NCBI RefSeq assembly: GCF_026151205.1
Contig: NC_087078.1
Span: forward strand, 1,753,675-1,817,674
Length of the DNA stretch: 64,000 nucleotides
Direction of reading: 5' to 3'
DNA from: Bolinopsis microptera
Lineage: Eukaryota; Ctenophora; Tentaculata; Lobata; Bolinopsidae
The stretch's first letter is position 1; each line of letters begins with the position of its first letter. Shown piece after piece: positions 22,795 to 59,839 of the stretch. Under the pieces are notes generated by a model. The model was not told the DNA's origin and made no database searches. It saw only the letters and a list, made by a program, of their open reading frames with translations. Both the position numbers and the translations under genes were made by a program.

Positions 22795-22985
22795 CGACCT
22801 CTCGATTGCAATCAGTCTCAGGACTGATCCAATGGAATGTCACGTCACAACTCACATTAATTCGTGGGGGGTCTTCAAAATAGGGTGGTAGAACTGTCAA
22901 ATGTGAGATTTTTACATCCTGTAGTTTCCAGTCGACAGATCAGGTCTATGTCAAAGGTTAAATTGACCAATATAAGAATCGGATT
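22795..22985 (+). promoter_or_regulatory. Conserved upstream region of family copy 1
   Basis: GATTGCAATCAGTCTCAGG, GATCCAATGGAATGTCACGT, TTCGTGGGGGGTCTT and TTTCCAGTCGACA are shared with the region 350 to 160 bp before the start codons of copies 3 and 4 (47,770-47,960 and 52,315-52,505). The match stops at 22,990 where the degraded block begins. Conservation could reflect recent duplication instead of function. Confidence 0.5.
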
Positions 22986-22989
22986 TAAA

Positions 22990-25900
22990 GAATTTGGGGT
23001 ACTTAGGAAAAGGAAAACCAAGGGGGGCCCCCTTAAAAATTTTAATATTATAAAATTTTTTAGAAGAAGGGGGAATGAATTTTAAATTTTTATTTTTAAA
23101 AAACAAGAAAAAGAAAAAATAAAAAATTTAAAGGGTTTAAAAGGTTATTTTATGCCGAAAAAAAAAAGAAATTTTTAAAATTTTTCCCCCCCCAAAAAAT
23201 TTGCAAATTTTAAAATTAAAGCCGAAGGTCCTTCAATTTTCTCCTTAGAATTTGTTTTCCCCCTCGGGGTTTTTTGGGTTTTTTTAAGCGCCCAAAAATG
23301 TTCCGGGCCCTTAGGAATAGAAAGGGCCCCAAAAAACACCACCTGCCCCAAGGGCTAAATGAAATTAAAAGGGTAAAGGGAAATTAAGAAATTTTTTTAA
23401 AACAGAACCTTTAAAATGTTTTAAAAGGTATTTAAAATTTAAAAATTTGTACCAAAAAACCCTTTTAAAAAAGGGAAAAAAAAAATTAAATTGGAAGCCC
23501 GGAAAAGGGGGTTTTTTCCCGCCGGCGAAATTTTCCCCTTTTCCTTGGTATCCCATTTACCCACCTTTGAGGAAATACTAAAATTTCCCAAATGGAAGGG
23601 TCATCCAATCACAATTTGGGGGGGTTTCCCAAAAAAGGGTAAACCCAATTTGTGGATTTTAAAAATTGTTTTCCACGAAAACATTTTTAAAAGAAAACCA
23701 ATTTTTAAACGATTTAAAAATTTGGCCACATCAACAAAAAAAATTTTTTTTTACTTTTAAGGAAAACTAATAATTATTTTAAATTTTTTCCCTTCAAATT
23801 TAAAAATTACCCCCCATATTTTAAAATTTTAAAATCTTTTTTTTAAAAGAAAAAACCCCTCCAAAAAATGTTAGATTTAGGGGCGGGAAAACCATCCTAA
23901 TTTACCAAACGGGCGGTGGTATAAAAGGGAAAGTATTCGCTTTTGAAACCCGGGGAATACGTCCCCAATTTTGTTTGCCCCCGGGAGAAGGGGGGGTAAG
24001 TTTCTGGGGAAAGAAACTTTCTTTTAAAGGGAAAATTTCAAATAATTGTTAAGGGGGGGAAAAAATTTTAAAGGCGGAAATAAACAAATTTGTTTCCCCT
24101 TTTTGAGAAAAATTTTAAATCAAAAAATCCCGGGGGGCCAAATTCTTAAAAAAAATTTTGGGGTAAAGGTGCATTTTCCCTTAAGGGGGAAAAAAAAATA
24201 ACTTTCCGGAGTTTTTAAGTTCCCCAATACAAAACCCGGGAAGGGTAAGGGGGGCTTTAAAAATTTAAAAAAGTTATTTCAAGTGGGAGTCTAAAAAGGG
24301 GGGGGGAAAGTTAAAACATTTTTTTAAATTTTTTTTGATTTAAAATTTTGCCATAAAAAAAAAATAAGGGAAGTTAAAAGGGAAAATTTTGATTCAAAAT
24401 TAAAAAAGTTTAACAAAAATTTTTCTTTTCAGGGGAATTTAGATTGAAATTTAACCCAAAAAGAAGGGGGTTATGTCCAAAAAATTTTGGGTTTTTTAAC
24501 CTGGGGGGCCCCCCGTAAAAAGGGAATTTCTCCCAATTTGCAAATTTCTTTTAAAAAAAGGATTTTAAAATTTGAAAGAACCTTGGGGTTTTTCGGGAAT
24601 TTTTAAAAAAGAAAGGAAAATTGGAAAATTTAATAAGATTGATTAAAAAAATAATTGGGCCAACAATGTTTTAACCCAAAATTTTTCACTTTCCCCAATC
24701 CCAATTTAAGGAAAGGGTTAAAAAAAAACATAAAACATTTTACATCCAACCCCCTTTTAAGTTTTCCCGGAAATTACAGAAAAGGGTTTTGGGTCTTGGG
24801 AAACCCGGGGGAATTTTTTTAAACTAAGGGGAAATGCTGCTTTTTTAAACCTTTTGACCAAAAAAAAGGCTACCAAAAAACTCTTTGGATTTTTTTTTCC
24901 CCAAAATTGGAAGTAACAAATTAATTTTAAATTTTTTTGGCCGGGTTTAATTTTAAAAATTTTTTATTTTTTAATTGGAAAGAAAACAATCAAAATAAAT
25001 GGGAAATTTTTTAAAATTTGAACGGAAGAAAACGGGTTGAGGAAAGGTAACTTCAGCCCAAATAAAAGTTTCAAATATTAAATTTAAAAAAAAAATAAAA
25101 ACGGAAAATTAAAAAAACCCCGTCCACCCTTTTTGACCAAAAAAATTCCCAACCCGAAATTTTCTTCTCCTTGTCTTGAATGCCCTATGGTTAAAAATTT
25201 ACATTCAATTTTTGATTTTGGGGGCTTAAAAATGATTAATTAAATAATTGAAGGGGGGGGATTTAATATTACTCGGTAAAAAATTTTATTATTTAAATTA
25301 AAACCCGTTTTTTTCGGCCAGTTGGAAAAAACCCTTTTTTTTCGGGGAAAATTGGGAAAAAGTTTTACCAAAACCAAGGCCGGCCCCAGAAAAAACCATA
25401 AATTTCAAAATACTTTTTTTTAAAATAAGGGGTTAGATTAAAAAACCCAAAGGCCGGGGGTGGATTATCGGGTTTACAAAACCCAGGGGGTTTTTGGGGA
25501 AAAGTTTAAAGGTACGCAAGGTAATCCACTTTTTACCCAAAATAATCCCTTAAAAACCCCATGGAAAATTTTAAATATACAAAACCAAGCAAAGTTTACC
25601 TTTTTGTTTGAAAAGGGGTTGGGGGGGGAAACGGGCCCTTTTCCCTTCCAGGACCCAAAAACTCTCGGAGTTTTCCCGAAACGGCCCAAAAACCCCAAAA
25701 AATTCAGAACCGGTGTTTTTTTTAAATTTCAAATTTGAAAAAAAGGGAAAAATAATTTAAAGGGGTAGAGTTGGTCCTTACGGAAATTTAAGAAAAAAAG
25801 GTTTCAAATATTTGAAACTTTGGCCGTACAGCAAACCCCCCATCCCCCCTTCCCTTTAAGGGCCCGGGGCACTTTTTAACCCCTTTTAAAAAAAACCCCT

Positions 25901-26745
25901 TTTTGGACAAATGTTTCAAAAATTATTGGAAGCCAAAAGTTCCAAGAAATAATTCCTTTTTTGAGAAAAAGGCCTCGTTGGGTTAGGGTTGTCCGGGGTT
26001 CCCTTCAAAAATCCCAATTCCTTCATTTTTTATTTCTATTTTTTTAGGAATTTTTTTATGAACTTGCAAAGTTTTTTAAAAAAATTAAAAATTTGGGATG
26101 AGGATTTGATTTTCAAATTGATCACCCGGGGTTGTTTTGGGGGAAACCCTTTCAGCAGTTGCCATTCAACTTTTTAAAAAAAATGGAGATTTAGACGGGG
26201 GTGTGTAAAAGGAACGTTTTGACAGATGCGGGAATTTTTTACATGGACCCGGGTCGGGCCCAATCCCCAAATTTCGCGATGACTTGGTTTTAAGAGGAAA
26301 TTTTTATTATGAAGCATGGAAATTTTTTTTAAATTATTATAAAAAAAACCTACTTTTTCATTGCATTTTTTTGAGTATTTTTTAAATTTGGGATGGAAAC
26401 TTTTTAAAAAAAACCACAGATCACCCAATTTCCAAAAAATAAATTTTTGGTTTTACCCCCCAGATGAAAACTCTAATAGTCCCTTAATTACATATAAATT
26501 TTTTTATTTTAGATATTAATTTTTTATATTAGAAAGTAATAAATCTAAATTTTTATATTTTAAAGGCCTGTGCGGTTTTCCCCAAATTTTGATATAAATG
26601 CCGACAATGAAACCAAAAAAAAGGGGATTTGATCTCCAAACTGGAGAAAAAGTGTGGTTTAGTGTAGTTTACTAAAATGGACTTTTTTAAAAAAATCTGC
26701 CGAAAAACCAATTTTTTAAAAAAATAAACAAACTCTAGCATGACA
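22990..26745. other. Low-quality sequence block: garbled front of family copy 1
   Basis: The stretch is dominated by homopolymers of A, T, C and G three to nine bases long. It can still be aligned to clean copies. 23,880-24,000 corresponds to exon 6 at 40,490-40,600; 25,055-25,080 to the intron at 41,560-41,580; 25,195-25,240 to 41,700-41,735; and 26,050-26,560 to 41,850-42,340, including exon 11. Error density falls toward 26,745 and sequence is nearly clean beyond 27,400. This fits unpolished or low-coverage consensus. ORFs inside it are not meaningful. Confidence 0.88.
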
Positions 26746-26797
26746 TATTTACCTATCATGCGAAAATTTATTCTATATAATGGATCATTTCTTTCAG

Positions 26798-28980
26798 CTT
26801 ACGTAGTGTCCGGAGGGACTAACATATCATGCTTCGTGCCTCAATTCCATCACCATCCTGTCTGGACAGAAACCCTGAAGAGGAGTCAACAGCTCGAGGA
26901 TGTTCTGTCCTTCTGGACAGTTCCTCCAGATGGTGTTTTGTGTTGAAGCGAGCCAGTGCAAATGTATCTATGAGGGAAAATTCTACAATGTTAGTACAGG
27001 GATACGAGTATTACTAAGTGTCCGTGTAAATTAGATTTTCTTTTTGCCATAAACTTAATCAACATGTGACGACTCAATGAAATTTCCGGGTGTGATTCAT
27101 TTCAAAAATTTGCGACAGAGATACAATCTCGGCCATAAAATTTGAATAATTTTTAAGGTTGGAGACGTCGTTGAGGAACCTGCAGAATGCCAATCTTGCA
27201 CTTGTGCAGGTGAAGGTGCAATGAACTGTGTAGACCTAGCGTGTCCCCGCTCTGAGTTGTGCTGCTAACAGGTACAGGCTCAAAGGATGATTCTTGCTGT
27301 GGTTACTGTGCAGCTGATTGGTCAAGGTCAGTTTTTAAATCAGGCCGAAAAAAGGGTGCAAAACTTTACTTTCTATAAGGTGTTCCCATCATTCACAGCC
27401 AGCCGTTCTGACAAGGTTAGCTACACTTCTTGTGTTGGTGTGTTAATCTTATGAAACATATGTATGAAAGTCAAATAATTTTGATGACATTTCATGAAAT
27501 TTTTCATTAAAACGCCCCAAACAACAGGCAATAAACCCGGATGTGAAAGTGAACAAAGGACAGACAATAGCTCTTACATGTGAAATTGATGTGAACGGAG
27601 TGTTGAAAAGAGACATCACATGGTCAAAAAATGGATCTCCAATAACAGCAGGAATTTCAGAAGACAAGTTTGTACATTCATAACGATTATCTGAATTACT
27701 TCGCGAGAGTGTGGCCGAGTAGCACGTTCATATTAGTAATTCCATATATCTTATATCCGTTCCCTTTTAAAAATAGATCAACTAAGCCCAAACTCTATTC
27801 AGGTTGGTGCTGAAGGTACGCAACGCAGATGCTCCTGATGGTGGAGCATATTCCTGCCAAGCTGTGAAGAACGGAAAATCAGATACTGCTGACTTTAACG
27901 TTGCTGTTGAGATACCTGTAGTTCCCAGGCTGACAGTCAGTCCTGCTAAGTCGATCTTGAATTGCAAGAAAGGCAAAAGAGGATGTAAAGTTCAGTTCAA
28001 AGTCAAAACTACAGATGGCTCGGTAAGATCTCTTATAAAGAAGTCCTTTCACTAATTTATCTTCAAGTAGGTCACAGTTGTAATTACTTGGGGTTCCCGA
28101 ATTTACTAATTTCATGTTCATTAAAAGTAGATATAATATTATAATACCTTGGCTATTGAGTGCTGGGCACGAAATAGCCAAGGTATTATGTATTATAATA
28201 CCTTCCGGGAATTATATCTACTAAAACTCGGGGACACCGAGAGCTGATAATTTGCACATTTTTCCCACAAGGGTAGCGAAGGTATTATCAGCATAGACTC
28301 AGACTGGCTGGCGGCAAGTACTCAAATATTAAAATACAATAATACCTTGGCTGCTTCGGGCCGCTCGTGATAATTCCCGACAGCTTGCTGGAGGGAATTT
28401 GCGGCCCGAAGCAGCCAAGGTATTATTGTATTATAATACCTCCACTACTTCGTGCCCGCGCGTTCCCTTCAGCAAGCTGTCGGGGATTATCGCGCTCAGC
28501 ACTCAGTGGCAGAGGTATTATAGTATTTAAATATTTCAGAAAGTTACCAGAAAGATGGTAAAGATATGTAAGTTAGAGAATGGTGTCAGAAGCCAGTGCA
28601 AGAACGGAAAAGGCAAAAAAGGTTCATACAAGCTTAAACTTAGCAAGAATGTGGAGGATAGCAGTTACATGTAAGTTAATTTGTCTTTTAAATTAGGAAA
28701 TTTGTCTTATTACTTTTGATAAGTCCAATGTAAGATACGAATAAAAAATGGCGGAAACATGAATTCGAACCCTCCGAGACAATCAGGAACACACCTCATT
28801 AGTAAGTATCAAGGCCCTTGCTTTTCAGATTCGTATTTCATTTTGCCTTATATACGTCAAGATGATTACAAATCATATGGATCTTTTATATTTATATTTA
28901 AAGTGTGTTACTTCAGTTGTGTGGTTACACTTGATGGTAAAGAATATGTCTCTGACGCAGCATCAGTAAAAGTCCAATAG
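26798..28980 (+). CDS. Family copy 1: exons 13-18 of the VWD/TIL/VWC/Ig secreted protein
   Basis: Readable exons correspond to copy 4 exons 13-18: about 26,798-26,992, 27,158-27,326, 27,528-27,667, 27,803-28,022, 28,540-28,670 and 28,917-28,980 (stop TAG). They encode the TIL domain, the VWC module and two Ig domains. The last four have exactly the lengths of copies 2 and 4. The first two carry several one-base insertions and losses, clustered next to the degraded block, so I suspect sequence error more than gene death. The intron before exon 17 contains a four-hairpin insertion found in no other copy. Exons 1-12 are buried in 22,990-26,745. Confidence 0.75.
28139..28522. mobile_element. Cluster of four hairpin elements in an intron of copy 1
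   Basis: Four palindromic units lie side by side: 28,141-28,189 (17-bp perfect arms starting ATAATACCTTGGC), 28,195-28,288 (11-bp arms ATAATACCTTC), 28,333-28,432 (32-bp perfect arms, loop 36 bp) and 28,432-28,522 (11-bp arms TATAATACCTC). Each opens with an ATAATACCT-type end and closes with its complement. The loop of unit 3 (CGACAGCTTGCTGGAGGGAA) reappears inverted in unit 4. The block interrupts an intron that reads straight through at the same point in copies 2 and 4. Confidence 0.85.
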
Positions 28981-28989
28981 TGGGGAGTG

Positions 28990-30110
28990 GTAGATAAAAC
29001 GAAGACGGTGATGGTAATAGCATTACTATACCATACAAAAAATATTTTAAAAAGAAAACTGAAAAAGCTGACAGCCTTTGCAGAGATGAAGAAATCTGTT
29101 TACGTCTAGATCAGAACAATGCATTAAAAATACAAAAAAATTAGCTATTAATGCAAAAAATAACTTATGAAAATCCAATTTTTCTAAAATTTAGCTTTTA
29201 TTGTTTAACATAATTATGGGAAAAAATGGAATTATTGTTACAATTATATTTTATTTTAATCAGATGTTTCCCTTGTTTACTACCAATTTAATGAAAATAA
29301 ACATTAAGCAATCATCTTTATAGTTTATTTCATATCAACAATTTCACACATTATTGATGCATTAAAGTTTAGTTCAAACATCAACCCTTGAACAAAATGG
29401 TCCGCAACACTCTTTCGGGGAAAAATGTTCGGTCTTAATTGCTCAGATATAGCACGTTTTTAAAAGTTTGTGAACCCCAAATATAACGATTAACATTTCT
29501 CCTCAACCTTGAGAATAAACACGACATATACCTTCCCTCACGAAACGTGAGTTTTATACACTCAATCGCCGTACACATCTAACTTTCAACAATGCCTTTA
29601 GTTCACAGGCTCACCATACAAAACCGAGACAATGGAAAATGAATCAAGTGCAAAGCTTGAACGATTACACCATTAGATGAGTTACATTGTGTACATTGAG
29701 ACTTGAGTGTTCCTTATGAAGTATTCATAAGATTTGAGGGAGCCAATCGAGGGAGTAGACATGTGTGATGATGTGACGTCACGAATTTTACTTTACTTTA
29801 CTTCATTCGCCGGGTGTGGACTTGTTATGAAACAAGTCGTTCCTGGGGACAGAAATACAATTCCTTAAAACCTGTAAGGAGTATGACAGTAGGTGTACTC
29901 TCACAATGAACACACAGATAGCATTCCCTGGCAATATCAACATTTTAAGTACGCGTCAATCACGATTTAATCACTCAACTTCAAAGCTTCCTGTAGGATT
30001 TTCCCCAAGCTAAAAACGTTGCCTACGAGTGAAATTGAATTATTTATACATTGATAAAGACCTCAAGACCTGTGCTTCAGGAAAAATAATCCTCACTTCC
30101 TGCAGATTTT
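28990..30110. other. Downstream region of copy 1
   Basis: 28,981-29,525 matches the 3' flank of copy 4 (59,840-60,360), including the stretch ending in AACACGACATATACC. From there to 30,110 I see no exon or known repeat. Confidence 0.6.
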
Positions 30111-30116
30111 TACAAG

Positions 30117-30395: not shown

Positions 30396-30400
30396 ACATC

Positions 30401-31379
30401 ATGGATCTGGAAACTATACAAGTACAAGTTCTAACCCTGACTAAAGTGACACAATTTCGATCTGTTGAAGAATTATCACGATCAAGCTCGATCGCAGTTT
30501 TTCACACTTCTTGTTTTGAAATTGTATCAAATATCGATAGCGACCCTGGTCATCAGGAAAGTTCGCACGAGATGGACCACGTTTTTCCCAATTTAACTTT
30601 AGAAGATTGTCACAGGAAGAACTTTATGATATTTCACATGTCTATAGATGTGGATACTGGCGGGGAGGTGATAATTGTTTGTTTACGTTTTAGTTGGCGC
30701 CTCTATTCAGCAGGTTGAAGAGGTGATGCAAATTTTTATATTATAGAACGCTTGTAACACTTATAACTCCTTTATTGTTACCCCCCTTTGAAGGTCCGAA
30801 TTATTTTCTGAACGAAAACTTAAAAATAACCGAGAATCGACCTTCTTATTAACTCATTTTGATGACTGTTACTGACCTAAAATTGCACGAAAAATCGATT
30901 TAACTAGGTTTCAGAACCTATAAACACTTCCTCATCCTCAAAATGGATGTTTTATATGTTAATACGAGCAACAAGCAACATATATTTTGATCCTTCGGTT
31001 CTACTCATGACCTAGGGCCTAGGGAGTTAAGCTGAAAGCGAAAGATCGAGGCAATCCTCACCTTAACTGATCGAACAGGTACTAACACAATTTTCAGATA
31101 GAAATGTTCGTTGCACTATGTTTATTGCAGCTTTGCAACTTGAGTGAAGAGCAGAGTACGAAAACACATAGCAGGTTAGCAACTCATTTCGGTGACTGTT
31201 TCTCACCTACCATTGTGCGAGACATCGATTTAGGTTGGTTTCACAGCCCAACAACACTCAAAATTCATGTTCTACTCAAACGAGAACATTTTGATTCTGC
31301 AACGAAAGAACAAGGATATCGTCTCGTTAAGACTCGAACAGGTACTATCACAATTTTCAGAGCAAAGCACGATAGCTAA
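30401..31379 (+). CDS. Possible two-exon gene, unknown product
   Basis: Exon 1 30,401-30,667 (267 bp, starts MDLETIQVQVLT, donor GAG/GTGATA) and exon 2 31,098-31,379 (acceptor TTTTCAG, ends RAKHDS and TAG) are both phase 0 and would give about 182 residues. A diverged, broken duplicate of the exon 2 region lies in the intron between them (about 30,830-31,095): both contain a region of the ACTCATTT-GGTGACTGTT type and end in GTACTA-CACAATTTTCAG. No domain is recognised. Exon 1 recurs in truncated form at 19,110. An inverted, badly garbled copy of most of this gene lies at 33,700-34,425. Confidence 0.4.
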
Positions 31380-37348: not shown

Positions 37349-40300
37349 ATGGCAATGATTAGAGTAATATTGCTGATAGCACTGCTCTCAGTAACAACGT
37401 GCTCGGTGGTCCAGGTAAGAGCGGAACATTTTATATTTACCACGATGATCACTGCTTATTACTACTGCTTTATGAGACATGTAGTTTCCATTAGTCAATC
37501 ACAGTTTTCTCTTCAAATTATGAGTTCTATCGACCACTCATTTCAGGGGATTGCACCTCGAGGAGAATTGGCTGCTTCAGGGACGCTGCGGACAGAGCGA
37601 TAGCCGGTGGAATCAGGTTACGTTCAAACAACCCCATTGTTGACTGCGCAAACTATGCTGGAGCCAGAGGCTGGACCATATTTGCAGTCCAATACAACAT
37701 TGAGTGTTTCACCGCAGAAAATGCTGGTCAAACATACAACAGATACGGAGGGGCGAATAACTGTGTAAATGGTAGAGGAGGCGGCTATGCACAGGATGTA
37801 TACGAGGTTTCATGTGAACGTGAGTTTATTTAAAACTTTAATTCATTCCATTTGAATTATTAAGAAACTGTTTATGTTTATGTCGGTTGACATTAAAATA
37901 TTCAAAACCCCTAAAAGAAATCAAGTCATTCTAAAATGGTGATCAGTACAGATCAAGAAAGCTAGAGTAAAATTTTGTTTCTCCAAGCAACTCTATCATC
38001 GGCTAATATCTTAAGCTTATTAAGATCATTCAAAGAGTTAAGTTTTAAACCTCTACGGGTCAAATCATTCACAATAATCTTGAACAAATTCTTACGATGC
38101 GCACCGACGCGCCCTTTACAGTTTGTTGTGACAGCATACTTTAACGCTAATGCTGCGGGGGAGTCATCAGCACTACGCAAGATATGACCTAGGTCCTAGG
38201 AGCTTCCACCTTGCTTTAAGGACACGATCTGATAGCTTTACTGAGTTACATCTTAGGTATAAGTTTGCATTGGATATTGTTCCATGAGGCCAATAAATGT
38301 TCAGTAATGTTCTAAGGTGTTTTTTATGGCAAATGTCTAGTTTTTCTAGTGACTTTGCAGTAGGACACCACTTACTGCAATTATACATGATGATTGATAA
38401 AATTTGGGCTTCGTATACTGCTATCTTTCTGGTAACGGAGATATTCTGCTGAGACCAGATCTTGGTGAACTTATAGAAGGCATTGTTCCCAGCAATGCAT
38501 CGAGCAGCTATATCACTTTCACTAAACAACAATGACCCAAGAATCTTACTCTTCCGACAATCCTCATTTCCACGTAACATGGTATCATCACGGCCAGGGA
38601 TTGTTTCCCCAACAGGAGGGAGGAAAACATGGGTAAATTCTGTTTTCTCTGTGTTAATGAACAGGTTAAACTCCTTGAAGACTTCCTTAGCTATTGGTAG
38701 CATTATAGCTTCTAAGGATTCTTTTTCCACGTTCATGAAGTTACAATCGTCTGAATACGCTGACTCCAGTGGCATACCTTCTTTGAAGATAGGGGGATTG
38801 GGTATGTGTGGGGGAGACTCTGCTAGTCAATGGCGAAGTTCAATAAGAGCTTGCCGGAGAGACTGTCACCTTGAAATGGACCCAAGAAGACTCTCGAATA
38901 CAGCAGATAGTTCTCCTTCCACTCTGACCTTGAGCATGGTGTTGGCTAAGAGGAGTCTTACTAGCCTGAGGTCGTCGTCTGTGCATCCAGCTTTGACAAG
39001 AAGGTCAAGTCCCGGTCAAGTATTGTCTGGCGTTTGATTGTATCTTGATGCTCGAGACATATCTATGCCCATCTTGTGATATTGGAATGATTTTATTTTA
39101 TAAATTCAAGTACATTATAACACTTTTGTCTTTTGCAATTAGTTGGTATTAAAGGTTGAGCACTCATTATTCAGTTAAATATATTGATGTATTATCTTTA
39201 CAGCTGAGTTTGAATGTACATCTGAGGAAACGGGACAAACACTGGGGGTAAGTATTTTCAACATTATCGTTTGATTTTAAAATGGGATCTGACCTAATAA
39301 CTCAACAACCTGAAGTATCAAGACTTTAAAACCATGCTCTACCCCACTCAATGTGATGATTCTGACCATTTTAATGCCCAAGATGAGCGCTTAGCTGCAA
39401 TCAGAAGCTGAGATATCTTGAAATAAGTGCGATAATTGTTACTAGCAAGACTGCTAGTATAGTAAGATCGGATTTTTAGCGATTTCTCAAATTTAATTCT
39501 CTTAGGCCTTAAGTATCTTCATAGCACTAAGATAAACACGCATCTTAGGCACATTTGGGTTAAACGCTGAGGTCTGTATCTCAATCAGAAGCCGAGATAA
39601 TTTATAGTGAGAGTCGCGATATGAGTGCGGTCAAAAAGGGCGTGATTCCGAGAAATGCCCCACTGGTGTAAAAGTGTACCCGAGTCAATTATGTTATTTA
39701 GGGTCATATAAGTCGGATTACATCGAGAAACTTAGCGCGAGTCCCAATGTGAGCAGCTCTTTTTCCAGGATTAAAGGGTTATTTTAACTGTCTTGAAAAG
39801 TTAAAAGTAATTAATCAAGAATAATTTGTCAAATATAATCACAATCAGCCGAACGAATCGTACATCAACGACTACGGAAAGAGGTGTGTATGTGGCTCAG
39901 AGGGATTTGTGTGTCTTTGTGATGACGCGTCCATGTCCTGCCCTGCTGGAAGTAGCAAATGGACTGATCAACTCACCTGCACAGCTAAATGCATCAAAGG
40001 TAAGGGATTCAGAGACATTTTTAACGTATATTTCATGTTTTAAAACTGATTAATTCAAATAAATTTGATATCTGAACGGACACCTTTAATAGGATTAAGA
40101 CTTAAGTAGAATTAACTGAAGTCTCGGAACAATGTTGTTTCAGATGCGGCACATTGTTCTAGTTCTGGTGATCCTCATTACCACTCGTTTGATGGCAAGT
40201 ACTACGATTTCCATGGAACATGTACATACCAGGCAGCCAGTTGTGATGATTTCCAGGTATTTACAGTCTACTATTGGAAGTGTTGGTACAGTATGTTGTT

Positions 40301-43300: not shown

Positions 43301-44379
43301 CAACAGGCAATAAACCCGGATGTGAAAGTGAACAAAGGACAGACAATAGCTCTTACATGTGAAATTGATGTGAACGGAGTGTTGAAAAGAGACATCACAT
43401 GGTCAAAAGATGGGTCTCCAATAACGGCAGGAATTTCAGAAGACAAGTTTGTACATTCATAACGATTATCTGAATTACTTCGTGGCCAAGTAGTACGTTC
43501 ATATTATTAATTCCATATATCTTTAATATTTGTTCCCTTTTTAAAATAGATGAATTAAGCCCAAAATCTATTCAGGTTGGTACTGAAGGTACGCAACGCA
43601 GATGCTCCAGATAGTGGAGCATATTCCTGCCAAGCTGTGAAGAACGGAAAATCAGATACTGCCGACTTTAACGTTGCTGTTGAGATACCTGTAGTTCCCA
43701 GGGTGACAGTCAGTCCTGCTAAGTCGATCTTGAATTGCAAGAAAGGCAAAAGAGGGTGTAAAGTTCAGTTCAAAGTCAAAACTACAGATGGCTCGGTAAG
43801 ATCTCTTGACTATTATAAAGAAGTCCCTTTAATAATTTATCTTCAAGTAGGTCCCAGTTGTTATTACTCGGGGTTCCCGGTTCTACAAAATACTAATTTC
43901 ATGTTCATTAAAAGTAGATATAATTTTAAATCTTTCAGGAAGTTACCAAAAAGATGGTTCAGATATGTAAGTTAGAGAATGGTGTCCGAAGCCAGTGCAA
44001 GAAAGGAAAAGGCAAAAAAGGCTCATTCAAGCTTAAACTCAGCAAGAATGTGGAGGATAGCAGTTACATGTAAGTTAATTTGTCCTTTAAATTAAGAAAT
44101 TTGTCTTATTACTTTTGAAAAGTCCAATGTAAGATACGAATAAAAAATGGCGGAAACATGAATTCGAACCCTCCGAGACAATCAGTAACACACCTCATTA
44201 GTAAATACCAAGGCCCTTGCTTTTCATATTCATATTTCATTTTGACTTATATACGTCAAGATGATTAAAAATTATGTGGATCTTTTATATTTATATTTAA
44301 AGTGTGTTACTTCAGTTGTGTGGTTACACTTGATGGTAAAGAATATGTCTCTGACGCAGCATCAGTAAAAGTCCAATAG
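37349..44379 (+). CDS. Family copy 2: secreted GCFKD-VWD-C8-TIL-VWC-Ig protein
   Basis: Eighteen exons: 37349-37414, 37547-37819, 39204-39247, 39849-39999, 40144-40256, 40472-40597, 40764-40822, 40973-41053, 41273-41405, 41589-41691, 41944-42047, 42345-42438, 42577-42767, 42934-43104, 43307-43446, 43576-43795, 43939-44069 and 44316-44379. Exons 2-18 equal copy 4 in length and keep frame with each other. Exon 1 is 66 instead of 67 bp because one base is missing late in the signal peptide (ACAACGTG against ACAACTGTG), which would put exon 2 out of frame. This lies 50 bp from a low-quality block, so it may be a sequence error. Domain content is as in copy 4. Intron 1 lacks the ~640-bp segment of copies 3 and 4, and intron 2 holds a LINE. 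The exon 3 donor is an ordinary GT. Confidence 0.88.
37857..39081 (-). mobile_element. 5'-truncated LINE in intron 2 of copy 2
   Basis: On the minus strand 38,775-38,173 encodes the end of a reverse transcriptase: the YSDD catalytic box (variant of YADD) in ESAYSDDCNFM, then FNLFINTEKTEFTHVFLPP and KILGSLLFSESDIAARC, then a YNCSKWCP segment. The C-terminal tail continues in another frame at 38,180-37,962 (GRVGAHRKNLFKIIVNDL, WRN). Upstream, near 39,020-38,850, more RT sequence is visible but disrupted by stops and shifts. Copies 3 and 4 lack the insert, and the flanking CCATTTGAAT and GAATGATTTTATTTT join directly there. It belongs to the jockey/CR1-like endonuclease-RT type. It is dead. Confidence 0.85.
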
Positions 44380-48118: not shown

Positions 48119-48490
48119 ATGGCAATGATTAGAGTAATATTGCTGATAGCACTGCTCTCAATAACAACTGTGTTCGGTGGTCCAGGTAAGAGCGTGATAA
48201 AACAGTATTTTCCTTACAATTTGGTTCAGAAAGGTGATAAGTGAAAGTACTTTAATTTGTATACGTGATTAAGAATTGCAATAACAATGTCTCAATGTTC
48301 CTCAATACAATCTCCAATAAATTCAGATTTCCTAGTTCTCCTGCTGTACTTAAACCAAAAAGGGTAACCTGCCATCCAACAAGCCCACTCTTAAGTATCC
48401 CTAAATAGTATAAACAATCTCCCACTCTAGCATTCTCTATTCTCTAGCAATCTCTAAACAATTCCCAAACTATCCTCCTTGTAACTTTGT

Positions 48491-48735
48491 AACCAAAACA
48501 GAGGTGTTAAAATGAACCCTCTGATAATCAAAACAGAGATGTTAAAGTTAACTCTCTGCTCCCCAAAACAGAGGTTTTAAAATGAACTCTCTGCTCCCCA
48601 AAACAGAGGTTTTAAAATGAACTCTCTGCTCCCCAAAACAGAGGTTTTAAAATGAACTCTCTGCTCTAAACAATTCCTAAACTATCCTCCTTGTCACCAA
48701 AACAGAGGTGTTAAACTGAACTCTCTGCACTACCC
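48491..48735. repeat. 35-bp intronic tandem repeat in copy 3
   Basis: About six imperfect units containing CCAAAACAGAGGTTTTAAAA and TGAACTCTCTGCT. It lies in the ~640-bp segment of intron 1 that copies 3 and 4 have and copy 2 lacks. Confidence 0.85.
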
Positions 48736-49291
48736 TGCTGTACTAAATGTCGTACACTAATGTCTAATATATGCCCTAAAATACTACGCTAAAATACTAG
48801 ACAAATAAGACATGCCTACAAATGACTGTACAGTATACAACAAGCGGAACATTTTATATTACCATCATGATCACTGCTTTATGAGACATAAAGCAGATTC
48901 TACGACTACTCATTTCAGGGGATTGCACCACGGTGAGAATTGGCTGCTTCAAGGACAATTGGAACAGAGCGATAGAAGGTGGAATCAGGTTTAATTCAAA
49001 CAACCCCATTGTTGACTGCGCAAACTATGCTGGCGCAAGAGGCTGGACCATATTTTCAGTCCAAGCCAACTCTGAGTGTTTCACCGCAGCCAATGCTGGT
49101 CAAACATACAACAGATACGGAGGGGCGAATAACTGTGTAAATGGTAGAGGAGGCGGCTATGCACAGGATGTGTACGAGGTTTCATGTGAACGTGAGTTTA
49201 TTTAAAACTTTAATTCATTCCATTTGGATAATTTTATTTTATAAATTCAAGTACATAACACTTTCGTCTTATGTAATTAGTTGGTATTATA

Positions 49292-50058
49292 CAGGGTGGG
49301 CCAAAAGTCAGTACCCATACGTTGGCCTTAATAGCTCCGCCGTGTTTTATATTTGAGAGCTGTTGCTTTGCAGATGGCATACTGTACTTACTGGTTCGAG
49401 GATTCCGTCGTCAAAATTTGAAAATTCGAATATTTTAGACCACGCCCATTCAATATTAAAACACCTATATTTTTTTCTCTGAACATGCTGAACGCCTAAT
49501 TTTTTCAGAGACGGTAGATTATCAAATGTTGCATATGATCTGAAAACATGAGGCAAATCGGATTAGAAATGACGAAGTTATCAATCATTTTCTGTATCTC
49601 GTTAACAATATTGACTGGGTGATTATGTGACATTGTGACACGACACCTTAATTGGGCAGCCTTCACGATTCCCATTATGTTTAACGGGGTAGTTAACGGG
49701 GGCACCTTATCACGTGATTAGGTAAACCAATCACCTGATCACACGTAATGAATAAACTCGTTATGCTTCATATCTCGGTCATCTGAGAAGCTACAGTTCT
49801 AATTCTTTCAGGACAAACGTAATTCGAATGGCCAAACACAATTCAATAACATTTAGCTTGATCCGACTATCCAAACTATCAAATAAATGTGAAAATGAAC
49901 CTCCATTTGAAAAAAATGAACGTGAATATTTTTCAAGTTGACAAATTCCTCGAACCAGTGGTGGTACTAAGCCATACCAGAAAGAAGTATTCAAATTGGG
50001 CACTCAGTGACTGAGCTATAAAGGCCAACGTATGGGTACTGACTTTTGGCCCACCCTG
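49292..50058. mobile_element. 767-bp mariner-type MITE in intron 2 of copy 3
   Basis: The ends are inverted repeats of about 46 bp with one mismatch, starting CAGGGTGGGCCAAAAGTCAG. TA flanks each side (49,290-49,291 and 50,059-50,060). In copy 4 the intron runs through the same site (53,830-53,850, TATTAGATATACAGTT) without it. TA duplication and the CAGGGTGG-CCAAAAGT end are typical of Tc1/mariner elements. No transposase. Confidence 0.92.
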
Positions 50059-50935
50059 TATATACAGTTAAATATACTGATTACTGATGTATTATCTTTA
50101 CAGCGGAGTTCGAATGTACATCTGAGGAAACGGGACAAACACTGGGGGCAAGTATTTTCAACATTATCATTTGAATTTAGATATAATGATAGAATTATAT
50201 TAGGTACAGTATGAAAAATAAAAACTAAGGGTTATTAAAAGGTTATTTTAACTGTCTTGAAAAGTAAAAATTAATTAATCAAAAATAATTTGTCAAATAT
50301 AATCACGATCAGCCGAACGAATCGTACATCAACGACTCCGGAAAGAAGTGTGTATGTGGCTCAGAGGGATTTGTGTGTCTTTGTGATGACGCGTCCATGT
50401 CCTGCCCTGCTGGAAGTAGCAAATGGACTGATCAACTCACCTGTACAGCTAAATGCATCAAAGGTAAGGGATTCAGAATCAGAGACATTTTGAACGTATA
50501 TTTCATGTTTCATATCCGAACGGACATCTTCAAAAGGATTACGACTAAAGTAGAATGAACTGAAGTCTCTGAAGTCTCAATGTTGTTTCAGATGCGGCAC
50601 ATTGTTCTAGTTCTGGTGATCCTCATTACCACTCGTTTGACGGAAAGTACTACGATTTCCATGGAACATGTACATACCAGGCAGCCAGTTGTGATGATTT
50701 CCAGGTAATTACAGTATACTATTGGAAGTGTTGGTACAATATGTTGTTCAAACACGTCCCATTTATTTAGAACACCATATCGTTTTTATCGGTTTATTAA
50801 CTCTTAGCCACATCAAAATTCAAATTAAAGGCCATCAAGGCAACTACATATATTCATATTATTGTTCCTTCAAATTGAATGTACAACAATAGTTTAAATT
50901 TAAAACCTCCTTTATTTCCGGTGAACGTCAAAAAG

Positions 50936-52662: not shown

Positions 52663-55600
52663 ATGGCAATGATTAGAGTAATATTGCTGATAGCACTGCT
52701 CTTAATAACAACTGTGTTCGGTGGTCCAGGTAAGAGCGTGATAAAACAGTATTTTCCTTACAATTTGGTTCAGGAAGGTGATAAGTGAAAGTACTTTAAT
52801 TTGTATACGTGATTAAGAATTGCAATAACAATGTCTCAATGTTCCTCAATATAATCTCCAATAAATTCAGATTTCCTAGTTCTCCTGCTGTACTTAAACC
52901 AAAAAGGGTAACCTGCCATCCAAAAAGCCCACTCTTAAGTATCCCTAAATAGTATAAACAATCTCCCACTCTAGCATTCTCTATTCTCTAGCAATCTCTA
53001 AACAATTCCCAAACTATCCTCCTTGTAACTTTGTAACCAAAACAGAGGTGTTAAAATGAACCCTCTGATAATCAAAACAGAGATGTTAAAATTAACTCTC
53101 TGCTCCCCAAAACAGAGGTTTTAAGATGAACTCTCTGCTCCCCAAAACAGAGGTTTTAAAATGAACTCTCTGCTCCCCAAAACAGAGGTTTTAAAATGAA
53201 CTCTCTGCTCTAAACAATTCCTAAACTATCCTCCTTGTAACCAAAACAGAGGTGTTAAACTGAACTCTCTGCACTACCCTGCTGTACTAAATGTCGTACA
53301 CTAATGTCTAATATATGCCCTAAAATACTACGCTAAAATACTAGACAAATAAGACATGCCTACAAATGACTGTACAGTATACAACAAGCGGAACATTTTA
53401 TATTACCATCATGATCACTGCTTTGTGAGACATAAAGCAGATTCTACGACTACTCATTTCAGGGGATTGCACCACGGTGAGAATTGGCTGCTTCAAGGAC
53501 ACCTGGAACAGAGCGATAGAAGGTGGAATCAGGTTTAGGTCAAACAACCCCATTGTTGACTGCGCAAACTATGCTGGAGCAAGAGGCTGGACCATATTTT
53601 CAGTCCAAGCCAACTTTGAGTGTTTCACCGCAGCCAATGCTGGTCAAACATACAACAGATACGGAGGGGCGAATAACTGTGCAAATGGTAGAGGAGGTGG
53701 CTGGGCACAGGATGTGTATCAGGTTTCATGTGAACGTGAGTTTATTTAAAACTTTAATTCATTCCATTTGAATGATTTTATTTTATAAATTCAAGTACAT
53801 AACACTTTCGTCTTTTGTAATTAGTTGGTATTAGATATACAGTTAAATATACTGATTACTGATGTATTATCTTTACAGCGGAGTTCGAATGTACATCTGA
53901 GGAAACGGGACAAACACTGGGGGCAAGTATTTTCAACATTATCATTTGAATTTAGATATAATGATAGAATTATATTAGGTACAGTATGAAAAATCAAAAC
54001 TAAGGGTTATTGAAAGGTTGTTTTAACTGTCTTGAAAAGTAAAAAGTAATTAATCAAAAATAATTTGTCAAATATAATCACGATCAGCCGAACGAATCGT
54101 ACATCAACGACTCCGGAAAGAAGTGTGTATGTGGCTCAGAGGGATTTGTGTGTCTTTGTGATGACGCGTCCATGTCCTGCCCTGCTGGAAGTAGCAAATG
54201 GACTGATCAACTCACCTGCACAGCTAAATGCATCAAAGGTAAGGGATTCAGAATCAGAGACATTTTGAACGTATATTTCATGTTTCATATCCGAACGGAC
54301 ATCTTCAAAAGGATTACGACTAAAGTAGAATTAACTGAAGTCTCTGAAGTCTCAATGTTGTTTCAGATGCGGCACATTGTTCTAGTTCTGGTGATCCTCA
54401 TTACCACTCGTTTGATGGCAAGTACTACGATTTCCATGGAACATGTACATACCAGGCAGCCAGTTGTGATGATTTCCAGGTATTCACAGTCCACTATTGG
54501 AAGTATTGGTACAATATGTTCTTCAAACACGTCACATTTATTTAGAACACCATATCGTTTTTATCGGTTTATTAACTCTTAGCCACATCACAATTCAAAT
54601 TAAAGGCTACCAAGGCAACTACTCGTATAATTGAATGTACAACAATAGTTTAAATTTAAAACCTCTTTATTTCAGGTTAACTTCAAAAATGTAGATTTAC
54701 TGGGACGAGCCCCGAGATTCACCAAACGAGCGGAACTGGAATACAAAGGGAAAGTGTTCGCTATTGAGAACGGATACGTAGCAACTGTTGACGGAGAAAG
54801 GGTAAGTTTCTTCAAGAACTTCAAATTTTGACAATATTTCAAATAGTGATTGATGAAAAATATAAACGGCGGAATATTTAAAAAATTCGGTGCTATTCGA
54901 CTTGTTGAGCCTAATAAAGTGCCAACTGCCGAAGCATTATTCTTAAAACTATCTTCTGTCAGGTTCAAGTGCCCTATGTAAAGAAATACACTTCGGGAGA
55001 TTCAGTTCAGATTCAAAACAAGTAAGGGGCTTAAAAAGTGAATAGTATTTCAAGATGGGAGTATGAGTTGGGAGTTCACATTATATCGCAACTTGACGTG
55101 CCATAACAATATTAATTAAACCTCTGTTAATTACATTTACTCATTTGGAACTAAAACTTGTTTCTTTTCAGCGGAGAGTTAGAGATCGTATTTTACCAAA
55201 ACAGCAAGGGAAGGATTCCTGCTACCAGAATAAGAGCTAACAATGCTGGGCGGTAGGGAATTCTACAATTTGCATATTTCTTTACAGATATTTGGATTGA
55301 AAGAGACCATGGTGGATCTTTTTCTGGAATTTATCAAAAACACAGAAAAAGATGATTTTGAGGATAATTTTATAAGAGCGATCTTCAATTGATAATTGGA
55401 CTATGTTTATCCCAAAATATTTTGGCAGTTTCCAAACATTATCAAGCAGTAAGATAAAATAAAATGATACAGGTACATCAACGCAGAGATTTCGTTACAC
55501 GGTTCTTGCTCTGGCGAAACTGAGGGATTGTGTGGAAACTGGAACGGAAATGCTGCTGATGACCTGACCGGGGGCTCACCAAACTCTCTTGGAGTTATTC

Positions 55601-58600
55601 ACCAGGTGAGCAGGCAACTAAATCAATAATATCTGGCACGGTAACTTTGGAAATGTTTCATTTGTTAAATTGGAAAGCAAACAAGCTGAATTAAATGGAA
55701 ACATCAATAGAGCACTGGATCGATCTTACATGGATAACTTCAGTACAAATAACAGTTCAAATATTAATCACAGCAATACGATGAGAACTGTCCTGCCCCA
55801 CCAGCCCCGTACCACCCATGTGACGACATTCCTCAAGGTCACGAATCTGCTGCACTCGTCTGTGATGCTCTAAAAGGTGATTTACACTCTCATTTTATGA
55901 TTTGGGGGCATGATTATCTCATTATAGTTACTCGTAACGAAACATCAACTTTACTTTATTATAACACCATCATCGGCCAGTCTGATAAAGTGATAAGAAA
56001 CGATCAGAAATTGTATTGAAAGACCTAAGGCCAGAGACATCAATTACTACTAATATTTTATCATGTCTAAGTGTTAGGAATAATTCATAAATTGCAAAGT
56101 TGTTGTAGATTGAAAATTTATATACCTTACTCGGGATTATTATGACCGGGATAAAGTGGCGGGTTTAGGGTAATTTCGCCATATTTTTCCCGAACCACAT
56201 TTTCACCGGTCGTTAATAAACCCGCCGTCTCAGCTTTTAGGGTTCCCAAGGGGTATGGGTGCTCATATTTTAATCGTTGTCTTATATTCACTGCCTACCT
56301 GTCTGCCTAGGTCGGTCCAGATGAAATCTGGAACGAGTTTAAAATTTGTATATTCACTAAAGAAGACTATTGGGACACTTGTTGTAGGTTTTTCGACTTC
56401 ATTTGGCTAAAATTGCAAAAATTCACCTTTTTGCCCAATTCTTGTCATATATCCTTATGGTCAAAGTTGATTTAAATAGGCCAATTTTTAATTTCTTAGG
56501 TATTGACTATCTCTACATAATGAAATAGGACTCAAAGTAAAAGTAACAGTTAAATTAAAACTTGAATTAATTAAAACTGTCATTAACATGAATCAGTTTC
56601 ATCAGTCATTTATTCATAATTCTAAACAATGTGAACGATGCATTCTTTCGAAGAAAATTATTTTCCATCTAGTTTGATTAACCGCGAGTCATTATTTCTG
56701 TCTACTTTCAACAATTATTGATAATTCGACTTGTTTCACAAGTTTTAGCAATGCGAAAATTTCTAAACTGGCTTATCTCTAATAAGGAAATTTACATCTG
56801 TGACAAAATTTTTGAATCTAAAATTGAAAGGTTGGACACCGGTAAAATGGCGACCGGGAAAATGTGGTGGGTTTTGAGCAATTTCGCCATATTTTTCCCG
56901 AACCATATTTTAACCGGTCGTTAATAAACCCGTCGTAATAATCCCGAGTAAAGTATTAGATGAGAATTTGAGTTTCAAATTTGATTGATCACACGTGTTG
57001 TTTTTAGGGGCACCGTTCAGCAGTTGCCATTCAACTGTTAGCTATGGAGATTTAGACGGCGGTGTGTACATGAACTGTTTGACAGATGTCTGTAATTGTT
57101 ACATGGATCAGGTCAGTCAGATTACCAAGTTCGCGATAACTTGGATAGAGTGAAATGTTATCATAAAACATGGTATCATTTTTAAGTTTTAACTTATTAC
57201 AACACTACTAATCTATTGCATTTATTGAGTATTATGTAATGGGATGGAAACATTTTAACCAGCTAGTCCACACCCTAGCTCAATAAAATAAATAATTTGT
57301 TTTACTTCTAGATGAAAATCTCTAATAGTGCTTTACAAGGTTGTTAAATACGTATTAGGAGGGAATACGTATTGGAATACGAATACGTATTAATCCTCGA
57401 AAATTGACGTATTACGAAAATTTCGATAAGCTAACATTAATTTCGCAAAAAATGTTAGCTTATCGGATTATCCATGAAATTTGATTACAAATTTAAGTTA
57501 TCATGTATAACTGCACTCCTTTAATGCATGATCGGTGATGAGGGTGGCGCGCAGCTGTAATGTTTAATTTTGACAAATCAGCGTATTACGGCGTATTATG
57601 GCGTATTCGTGGACGTATTTAACAATCCATAGAAATTAACGTATTACGGCGTATTACGACGTATTCTTTATTAGAACCGAATACGTCGTATTCTTTCACG
57701 AAAATTTGACGTATTTAACAACCTTGGTGCTTTAATACTACATATATTAATATTTTATATTAGATATTAATATTTTATATTATAAAGTAATGACTCTAAA
57801 TTTATATATTATTTCAGGCCTGTGCGTGTTCCCAATTTGATATATATGCCGTACAATGCAACCAAAATGGAGTAGATCTCTCTGACTGGAGAGAAAGTGT
57901 GGATTATTGTCGTAAGTTTGCTAAAATGGACAGTTTAAAAAAGATTCTGCCAGATTAAACAACTCTTTAACAATTAGTTAAACTCAAGTCTCAAGCATGA
58001 CATATTTACCTATCATGCCGAAAATGTTAATCTATATAATAAATCATTTCTTTCAGCTTACGTATGTCCGGAGGGACTAACATATCATGCTTCTGCCTCA
58101 ATTCCATCACCATCCTGTCTGGACAGAAACCCTGAAGAGGAGTCAACAGCTCGAGGATGTTTCTGTCCTTCTGGAAAGTTCCTCCAAGATGGTATTTGTG
58201 TTGAAGCGAGCCAGTGCAAATGTATCTATGAGGGAAAATTCTACAATGTTAGTACAGGACACAGACCATTTCTAAGTTTCGTGTAAATTAGATTTTCTTT
58301 TTGCCATAAACTTAATCAACATGACTACTCAATAAAATTTCCCGTGTGATTCATTTCAAAAATTTGCGACAGATATACAATCTCGGCAATTAATCAATTA
58401 AATTTGAATAATTTTCAAGGTTGGAGACGTCATTGAGAAACTTGCAGAATGCCAATCTTGCACGTGTGCAGGTGAAGGTGCAATGAACTGTGTAGATCTA
58501 GCGTGTCCCGCTCTGAGTTGTGCTGCTAACGAGGTACAGGCTCAGAAGGATGATTCTTGCTGTGGTTACTGTGCAGCTGATTGGGTCAAGGTAGGTTTTG

Positions 58601-59839
58601 AATCAGACCGAAAAAAGGTTGCAAAACTTTACTTTCTATAAAGTGTTCCCATCATTCACAGCCAGCCGCGCTGGGCCGCTCTGACATGGTTAGCTACCTA
58701 ACTTGTGTTGGTCTGTTAATCTTATGAAAACATATGTATGAAAGTCAAACACAACAGTTCATTAAATCGTTCCAAACAACAGGCAATAAACCCCGAAGTG
58801 AAAGTGAACAAGGGACAGACAATAGCTCTTACATGTCAAATTTATGTGAACGGAGTGTTGAAAAGAGACATCACATGGTCAAAAGATGGGGCTCCAATAA
58901 CGGCAGGAATTTCAGAAGACAAGTTTGTACATTCATAACGATTATCTGAATTACTTTGTGGCCGAGTAGCACGTTCATATTAGTAATTCCATATATCTTA
59001 TATCCGTTTCCTTTTAAAAATAGATGAAGTAAGCCCAAACTCTATTCAGGTTGGTACTGAAGGTACGCAACGCAGATGCTCCAGATAGTGCAGCATATTC
59101 CTGCCAAGCTGTAAAGAACGGAAAATCAGATACTGCTGACTTTAACGTTGCTGTTGAGATACCTGTAGTTCCCAGGGTGACAGTCAGTCCTGCTAAGTCG
59201 ATCTTGAATTGCAAGAAAGGCAAAAAAGGATGTAAAGTTCAGTTCAAAGTCAAAACTACAGATGGCTCGGTAAGATATCTTGACTATTATAAAGAAGTCC
59301 CTTCAATAATTTATCTTAAAGTAGGTCCCAGTTATAATTACTCGGGGTTCCCGGTTCTACTAAATACTAATTTCAAGTTCAATAAAAGTAGATATAATTT
59401 TAAATCTTTCAGAAAGTTAACAAAAAGATGGTTAAGATATGTAAGTTAGAGAATGGTGTCAGAAGCCAGTGCAAGAAAGGAAAAGGCAAAAAAGGCTCAT
59501 TCAAGCTTAAACTTAGCAAGAATGTGGAGGATAGCAGTTACATGTAAGTTAATTTGTCTTTTAAATTAAGAAATTTTGTCTTATTACTTTTGAAAAGTCC
59601 AATGTAAGATACAAAAGAATTGGCGGAAGCATGAATTCGAACCCTCCGAGACTATCAGTAACACATCTCAATAGTAAGTATCAAGGCCCTTGCTTTTCAG
59701 ATTCATATTTCATTTTGCCTTATATACGTCAAGATGAATAAAAATTGTGTGGATCTTTTATATTTATTACTTCAGTTGTGTGGTTACACTTGATGGTAAA
59801 GAATATGTCTCTGACGCAGCATCAGTAAAAGTCCAATAG
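52663..59839 (+). CDS. Family copy 4: intact 754-aa secreted GCFKD-VWD-C8-TIL-VWC-Ig protein
   Basis: Eighteen exons: 52663-52729, 53463-53735, 53879-53922, 54088-54238, 54367-54479, 54676-54801, 54963-55021, 55172-55252, 55473-55605, 55774-55876, 57008-57111, 57818-57911, 58057-58247, 58420-58590, 58783-58922, 59050-59269, 59413-59543 and 59776-59839. Total 2,265 bp, open throughout. Order: signal peptide (1 to about 21); GCFKD-type domain (about 24-113, ends GGGWAQDVYQVSCE, resembling WSC-like domains); short cysteine-rich linker; VWD (about 183-350, SGDPHYHSFDGKYYDFHG to GLCGNWNGNAADD); C8 (about 352-450); TIL (about 452-510); VWC (about 505-566, CQSCTCAGEGAMNC, CCGYC); two Ig domains (571-754, DSAAYSCQ and DSSYICVV). 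Such proteins are secreted, disulphide-linked matrix or mucus components; an immune role is possible but unproven. Exon 3 uses a GC donor. Confidence 0.93.
53033..53275. repeat. 35-bp intronic tandem repeat in copy 4
   Basis: Same repeat as at 48,491-48,735, nearly identical, in intron 1. Confidence 0.85.
56125..56953. mobile_element. 829-bp inverted-repeat element in intron 10 of copy 4
   Basis: The ends CCTTACTCGGGATTATTA and, inverted, CTTTACTCGGGATTATTA match over 17 of 18 bases. Just inside are two direct repeats of about 70 bp (56,168-56,236 and 56,866-56,934) sharing ATTTCGCCATATTTTTCCCG and CCGGTCGTTAATAAACCCG. Copy 2 lacks the element (uninterrupted at about 41,888-41,900). The target duplication is a short TA-rich sequence I cannot delimit. 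No coding capacity. Confidence 0.8.
57336..57726. mobile_element. 391-bp hAT-type MITE in intron 11 of copy 4
   Basis: The ends CAAGGTTGTTAAATACGT and ACGTATTTAACAACCTTG are perfect inverted repeats. The 8-bp GTGCTTTA flanks both sides (57,328-57,335 and 57,727-57,734). Copy 2 has the single unoccupied site with one base different (GTGCCTTA, at about 42,260). The interior is rich in ACGTATTA-type words in both orientations. Confidence 0.92.

What the first reader, a model, noticed from the sequence alone, without database searches (positions are those of the whole stretch)
22800..59839. Tandem array of a multi-domain secreted protein family with an unusual domain order
Four copies of one 18-exon gene encode signal peptide, GCFKD-type cysteine-rich domain, VWD, C8, TIL, VWC and two Ig domains in 754 residues. 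VWD-C8-TIL is the mucin/zonadhesin module, but capping it with a WSC-like domain in front and two Ig domains behind is not an architecture I can name. Clustered young copies of an Ig-bearing secreted protein could be a lineage-specific matrix, mucus, adhesion or recognition system. Exon lengths are identical across copies, and the exons appear much better conserved than the introns.
Basis: partly seen in the sequence, partly recalled or inferred. Interest (0 to 1): 0.8.

Follow-up and report, generated by a model that had tools for sequence, protein, structure and literature searches.

The report
Comb-jelly secreted protein, fast-changing head
In a comb jelly, a gene with broken copies beside it encodes a secreted, probably sticky or recognition protein whose rear part hardly changes while its front domain changes quickly, and related genes elsewhere in the genome carry different front parts on the same rear part.

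Summary
Copy 4 (52663-59839) is an intact 18-exon, 754-residue gene: signal peptide, GCFKD head, Cys-rich linker, VWD, C8, TIL, VWC, Ig and a C-terminal domain not confirmed as Ig. Copy 2 has all 18 exons but a 1-nt deletion in exon 1; copies 1 and 3 are fragments. The genome is a ctenophore, probably Bolinopsis microptera. The head is a WSC domain by fold (Kremen, yeast Wsc1), and two paralogous heads pass Pfam's WSC cut-off. A fully intact relative lies on contig 5.

New points: (1) the head is the fast part. Copy 4 versus the contig-5 gene differ at 20 of 90 head residues plus two insertions, against 31 of about 655 elsewhere; head dN/dS 1.42, core 0.33. Whole-head dN/dS above 1 is not significant. 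(2) The same chassis carries other front parts elsewhere: F5/8C-like (contig 2, below cut-off) and perhaps jelly-roll-like (contig 3, weak). (3) VWD keeps the GDPH self-cleavage motif.

Best reading: a secreted FCGBP/Sfp1-like D-assembly protein with exchangeable ligand-binding heads, used in mucus, glue or defence. New variant of a known kind. Expression is untested.

The parts
52663..59839 (+). Copy 4: intact 18-exon gene, 754 aa
   Evidence: exons 52663-52729, 53463-53735, 53879-53922, 54088-54238, 54367-54479, 54676-54801, 54963-55021, 55172-55252, 55473-55605, 55774-55876, 57008-57111, 57818-57911, 58057-58247, 58420-58590, 58783-58922, 59050-59269, 59413-59543, 59776-59839
52663..52729 (+). 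Copy 4 exon 1: signal peptide (by hydrophobicity)
   Evidence: hydropathy highest at residue 1, no later stretch typical of a membrane span
53463..53735 (+). Copy 4 exon 2: WSC-type head on one exon bounded by phase-1 introns on both sides
54367..55605 (+). Copy 4 exons 5-9: VWD with GDPH motif preceded by Cys
   Evidence: GDPH cleavage chemistry from PMC10880436
55774..57911 (+). Copy 4 exons 10-12: C8 domain
58057..58590 (+). Copy 4 exons 13-14: TIL and VWC
58783..59839 (+). Copy 4 exons 15-18: I-set Ig domain and a C-terminal domain not confirmed as Ig
37349..44379 (+). Copy 2: all 18 exons; 1-nt deletion in exon 1 breaks the frame after the signal peptide
37547..37819 (+). Copy 2 exon 2: WSC-type head
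48119..50704 (+). Copy 3: exons 1-5 only; looks like a partial duplication of the copy-4 5' half with its upstream spacer
48919..49191 (+). Copy 3 exon 2: WSC-type head
22797..22998 (+). Copy 1: fragment of the region upstream of exon 1, 94-95% identical to copies 3 and 4
26148..28980 (+). Copy 1: degraded remnants of exons 11-14 and open exons 15-18

Best explanation
The window holds one intact gene (copy 4) and three broken relatives of a ctenophore family of secreted D-assembly proteins. A WSC-fold head, encoded on one exon bounded by phase-1 introns, sits on a disulfide-rich chassis (Cys-rich linker, VWD-C8-TIL, VWC, Ig, C-terminal domain). Proposed working: the protein is secreted; the VWD cuts itself at GDPH and stays held together by a disulfide; the chassis anchors it in mucus, glue or matrix; the head binds a ligand, probably a glycan, on something outside the animal (prey, microbe or gamete). 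Shown: gene structure, head fold (by prediction), conserved chassis, accelerated head in this subfamily, different front parts on relatives. Inferred: secretion, cleavage, anchoring, ligand binding and its target.
For: Intact frame and intact relative on contig 5, 762 aa. Core under purifying selection, dN/dS 0.33, P 6.5e-5. Copy 4 v contig 5: head nonsynonymous rate exceeds the core (27.5/212 v 32.2/1506 sites, P 2e-11) while synonymous rates do not differ (P 0.27); nonsyn:syn ratio differs, P 0.012. The 25 head positions that vary among four copies avoid columns conserved in 18 other heads (0 of 16 invariant, P 0.003; 2 of 37 at 70% or more, P 3.8e-5), so the head is not simply decaying. Head fold: Kremen TM 0.69-0.76 in four entries and Wsc1 0.59-0.60. 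Contig-2 relative: 297 of 639 aligned chassis columns identical and 45 Cys aligned (47 and 45 present) under an F5/8C-like head. Best solved relative FCGBP, E 1.7e-98. In sea-star adhesive, Sfp1 and Sfp2 combine VWD-C8-TIL and glycan-binding domains (PMC9382459, passages).
Against: No transcript, protein or binding evidence. Head dN/dS above 1 is not significant over the whole head (P 0.26); at externally variable columns it is borderline for this pair (P 0.055 at the 70% cut, 0.013 at 50%), and only 4 of 12 such tests over all pairs give P below 0.05 (pairs not independent, unadjusted). Three of six pairs have head dN/dS below 1. Changed head positions are not enriched in loops (12 of 25 in loops, P 0.64). 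Head dS of copy 2 v copy 4 is also raised (P 0.012) and the copy-2 5' flank is only 71% identical, so part of that pair's head divergence is age or mosaicism. On contig 3, in one pair of paralogues and three of four head exons, the head is more conserved than the VWD (6 of 145 v 23 of 162 differences, P 0.003), so a fast head is not a rule of the family. The non-WSC heads are named from sub-threshold matches.
Confidence: 0.58

Rival explanations
1. Prey-capture glue: the protein is a colloblast or tentacle adhesive and the head follows prey surfaces.
For: vWD and lectin categories are over-represented among Mnemiopsis colloblast candidates; the VWD domain is shared by known adhesives, colloblast and tentacle sets; sea-star footprint protein 1 is the adhesive hit of 2 colloblast and 3 tentacle rows in the part of Table 1 that I saw (PMC6278862, passages). 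VWD-C8-TIL recurs in proposed cohesive proteins of temporary adhesives (PMC9382459, passages).
Against: [quoted passage not shown] I could not link any of its genes to this family.
Confidence: 0.25
2. Mucosal defence: an FCGBP-like mucus component whose head binds microbes.
For: FCGBP is the best solved relative; GDPH is present; a fast head fits an arms race.
Against: FCGBP has 13 D assemblies (PMC10880436) against one here. No immune-induction data. [quoted passage not shown]
Confidence: 0.25
3. Gamete recognition, zonadhesin-like: the head mediates sperm-egg matching.
For: Zonadhesin combines rapid divergence with VWD domains (PMC9275260 and PMC1325057, search listing with abstract starts only); conserved chassis with a fast head fits.
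Against: No MAM domain or membrane span found. No expression data.
Confidence: 0.08
4. Relaxed constraint: the head no longer matters and drifts, or copies are mosaics.
For: Head dN/dS is not significantly above 1; three of four window copies are broken; copies 2 and 4 are mosaic in divergence.
Against: Changes avoid columns conserved in other heads. Recent copies 3 and 4 differ more in the head than in nearby, mostly non-coding DNA (P 7.5e-4). Other WSC matches in the genome are at most 58% identical to the head, so they are poor gene-conversion donors for heads 78-93% identical to copy 4.
Confidence: 0.2

Closest known systems
FCGBP (IgG Fc-binding protein)
   Same: VWD-C8-TIL assembly and GDPH motif; best solved relative, E 1.7e-98
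   Different: 13 D assemblies (PMC10880436); here one, with a WSC head and VWC-Ig tail
Sea star footprint protein 1 and flatworm/limpet cohesive proteins
   Same: Secreted VWD-C8-TIL proteins; glycan-binding domains in Sfp1 and Sfp2; Sfp1 is autocatalytically cleaved (PMC9382459, passages)
   Different: Sfp1 is 3853 aa in four subunits; no WSC or Ig mentioned in the passages seen
Zonadhesin
   Same: VWD-type adhesion protein, rapidly diverging (PMC9275260, listing only)
   Different: MAM domains and mucin repeats besides VWD (PMC1325057 abstract start); none found here
Kremen and yeast Wsc1 (WSC domain)
   Same: Head fold: TM 0.69-0.76 to Kremen entries, 0.59-0.60 to Wsc1 (query-normalised)
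   Different: Different partner domains; both are membrane proteins (recalled)

Membership tests
WSC domain (PF01822) | Match over Pfam's gathering score | tested here: inconclusive
   Copy-4 head 18.9 bits v cut-off 27.8; of two paralogous heads scanned, both pass: 32.4 and 28.1 bits
WSC domain (PF01822) | WSC fold | tested here: met
   AlphaFold2 model pLDDT 92.4; first six Foldseek hits are Kremen or Wsc1, only the first at E below 0.001
[quoted passage not shown]
   (TIL only when scanned as a piece)
GDPH self-cleaving VWD | GDPH motif with preceding Cys | tested here: met
   Exon 5 of copies 2, 3, 4 and of the contig-5 gene
GDPH self-cleaving VWD | Cleavage between Asp and Pro | not testable with these tools
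   Needs the protein
Gel-forming mucin | Ser/Thr/Pro-rich mucin region and cystine knot | tested here: not met
   No cystine-knot family at E up to 5; no Ser/Thr/Pro-rich stretch in the translation, judged by eye
Zonadhesin | MAM domains and membrane span | tested here: not met
   No MAM hit; highest 19-residue hydropathy after residue 25 is 0.99
Immunoglobulin superfamily | Ig domain over cut-off | tested here: met
   I-set 38.2 bits v 23.7 for the first; second not confirmed
Temporary-adhesion proteins (Sfp1/ap1 type) | Secreted in an adhesive | not testable with these tools
   No expression or proteome data

The most novel reading that the evidence does not exclude
A ctenophore exchangeable-head recognition or adhesion system: one conserved self-cleaving VWD-C8-TIL-VWC-Ig chassis fitted with different lectin-like heads (WSC, F5/8C-like, jelly-roll-like), in which the WSC head, carried on a phase 1-1 exon, diversifies under positive selection while the chassis stays fixed.
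Probability: 0.3. Interest if true: 0.75.

Novelty: new variant of a known kind. Interest (0 to 1): 0.5.

Why it matters
[quoted passage not shown] A conserved chassis with different and, in one subfamily, fast-changing heads gives a concrete gene set for testing whether glue, mucus defence or gamete recognition drives it, and shows how D-assembly proteins gain new binding parts.

Tried and rejected
Cnidarian host: my first guess; replaced by ctenophore. A COX1 search found nothing in the assembly. A first glutamate-receptor ORF (L042) matched only kainate-type or unspecified glutamate receptors at the cut-off used, none labelled as ctenophore (18 rows); a second (L043) gave Mnemiopsis ML032222a as its only three hits at E 1e-55 or better.

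Head as a gene-conversion product of other WSC genes: judged unlikely, nearest other WSC is 58% identical. Changed head residues concentrated in loops: not supported, P 0.64. A first conserved-column test was circular because the four copies helped define the columns; it was redone with the other 18 heads. Fold of the Ig and C-terminal region of the contig-2 relative: first ~90 residues well predicted, the rest failed. VIA-align library not on the machine. Contig-3 head: only 3keto-disac_hyd at E 0.072, nothing convincing in PDB, so 'jelly-roll' is a weak reading that rests partly on recall. In checking this report I withdrew a statement that WSC and VWD matches lie within 20 kb only at the window and contig 5: contig 11 has one more such pair.
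Full report
Where it is. The window is contig 7, 1753675-1817674, of a 264.65 Mb assembly of 232 contigs. The lengths of contigs 1-13 are all 15.2-26.2 Mb and sum to about 258 Mb; contigs 14-17 are below 0.2 Mb. Bolinopsis microptera is reported as 265 Mb (table passage of PMC11797021) with n = 13 and 13 scaffolds holding 97.23% of bases (PMC10232365, passages); here the 13 hold about 97.5%. A glutamate-receptor ORF had Mnemiopsis ML032222a entries as its only three PDB hits at E 1e-55 or better; another ORF's 18 hits were kainate-type or unspecified receptors. So a ctenophore is well supported; the species is inferred. The scaffold count differs (346 in that table, 232 here).

The gene. Self-comparison shows four related stretches. 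Hand modelling gave copy 4: 18 exons, 754 aa, consistent phases, all GT-AG save a GC donor after exon 3. Copy 3 shares the GC donor; copy 2 and the contig-5 gene have GT. Copy 2 has 18 exons, but exon 1 is 66 nt to its donor instead of 67; read as spliced it stops at codon 41. Copy 3 ends after exon 5, where the DNA runs into a second copy of the spacer that lies upstream of copy 3. Copy 1 keeps a promoter-side fragment and remnants of exons 11-18, with exons 13-14 broken and 15-18 open. A fifth copy, within contig 5:14727500-14737400, is intact: 18 exons, 762 aa, with 24 more bases in exon 2.

Domains. VWD, C8 and I-set pass on the whole protein; TIL and VWC pass as pieces. The C-terminal ~100 residues and the linker of exons 3-4 match nothing over cut-off. 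The head scores 18.9 bits against WSC (cut-off 27.8); the two paralogous heads that I scanned score 32.4 and 28.1. An AlphaFold2 model from 22 heads (pLDDT 92.4) has Kremen and Wsc1 entries as its first six PDB neighbours, one of them at E below 0.001. So the head is a diverged WSC domain. The genome has 57 matches to it at E 0.001 or better, of 62 candidates scored. Comparing that list by eye with the 99 VWD matches, a WSC and a VWD on one strand lie within 10 kb only at the window and contig 5; one more pair, contig 11 at 15605442 and 15622662, lies 17 kb apart and was not examined. Both lists are lower bounds. Of 20 other WSC stretches examined with short flanks, the best-scoring acceptor is phase 1 in 14, the best donor in 13 and both in 9, by consensus alone and with some tied scores.

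The chassis with other heads. A homologue on contig 2 has a single-exon chassis (297 of 639 columns identical, 45 Cys aligned) under a head that, with its upstream exon joined, matches F5_F8_type_C_2 at E 4.9e-5, 24.3 bits, below the 27.8 cut-off. Clusters on contig 3 carry the chassis module, in places twice in a row, behind a multi-exon head that may be a jelly roll (3keto-disac_hyd E 0.072 only). Contig 11 holds further copies. So the front parts of relatives differ, but only the WSC assignment is firm.

Selection. Counts are Nei-Gojobori, pairs overlap, and P values are unadjusted. Copy 4 v contig 5, both intact: head nonsyn 27.5/212, syn 5.5/58, ratio 1.42; core (641 codons) 32.2/1506 and 25.8/414, ratio 0.33; nonsyn rate P 2e-11, syn rate P 0.27, ratio P 0.012. 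In residues, the head differs at 20 of 90 plus two insertions (left out of the counts); the other 17 exons differ at 31 of about 655, codons split by introns not counted. Head ratios of the other five pairs: 1.43 (2v3), 0.83 (2v4), 0.75 (2v5), 0.54 (3v4), 1.53 (3v5). Whole-head ratio above 1 is not significant in the two pairs tested (P 0.26 and 0.29). At columns not conserved in 18 other heads the ratio for 4v5 is 2.46 (P 0.055) or 3.34 (P 0.013) by cut-off; over six pairs and two cut-offs, 4 of 12 tests give P below 0.05. Changed positions avoid conserved columns but are not enriched in loops. Between recent copies 3 and 4 the head changes faster than the 5' flank, exon 1 and intron 1 together. 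Copies 2 and 4 are mosaic: 71% identity upstream, about 92% over most of the downstream part. In one pair of contig-3 paralogues, the head (three of its four exons) is the slower part.

Mechanism. The VWD carries GDPH after a Cys. In FCGBP this motif cuts itself, the piece stays attached by a disulfide, and protease resistance rises (PMC10880436, abstract and passages). No membrane span appears after the signal peptide. Ligand binding by the head is inferred from the fold class and from lectin-like heads on relatives; a link of WSC to carbohydrate binding was seen only through a section title in a fungal paper (PMC3192844, passages). The nearest working analogues are FCGBP and sea-star Sfp1. 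Colloblast candidates of Mnemiopsis are enriched for vWD and lectin (PMC6278862, passages), but I could not place these genes there.

Print. The listings of searches showed no description of this architecture; 'WSC domain' with 'VWD domain' returned no paper. That library lacks most subscription journals, I read listings and passages rather than whole papers, and no animal protein database was available, so lineage restriction and novelty are only partly tested.

Verdict. A real, functional-looking gene with an unusual order of known domains, a fast head and a conserved chassis: a new variant of a known kind.

Noticed in passing
window 924-3146: 185 copies of a 12-base unit at 100% match; open in five of six frames listed, so it mimics long ORFs.
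   Followed up: no
window 5692-6225: About 18 copies of a 30-base unit at 99% match.
   Followed up: no
window 9456-10568, minus strand: Open frame with a RING-H2 finger (zf-RING_2 3.7e-13).
   Followed up: partly
window 62818-63603, minus strand: Cyclophilin-type isomerase (1e-51); sequence looks like the end of PPWD1 (recalled).
   Followed up: partly
window 30940-32021 and 33048-34210: Two stretches 72% identical in opposite orientation between copies 1 and 2.
   Followed up: no
window 38173-38826, minus strand: 217-codon open frame inside copy 2 intron 2; reads like a retroelement piece (recalled) but matches no Pfam family at E 0.01.
   Followed up: partly
L024 4392-5517: Repeated TIL-end exon fragments at 75- or 150-base spacing between chassis modules on contig 11.
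   Followed up: no
L011, L013, L015, L018, L019 (contig 3): Chassis modules in tandem within a cluster; the second module's VWD no longer reads GDPH (ADPF in four, ADPH in L019).
   Followed up: partly
G000 contig 11, 15605442 and 15622662: A weak WSC match and a VWD match on the same strand 17 kb apart, outside the family described.
   Followed up: no
hits: 32 matches to the glutamate-receptor ligand domain, 22 of them in open frames of 431-989 codons, so many of these genes look intron-poor.
   Followed up: no
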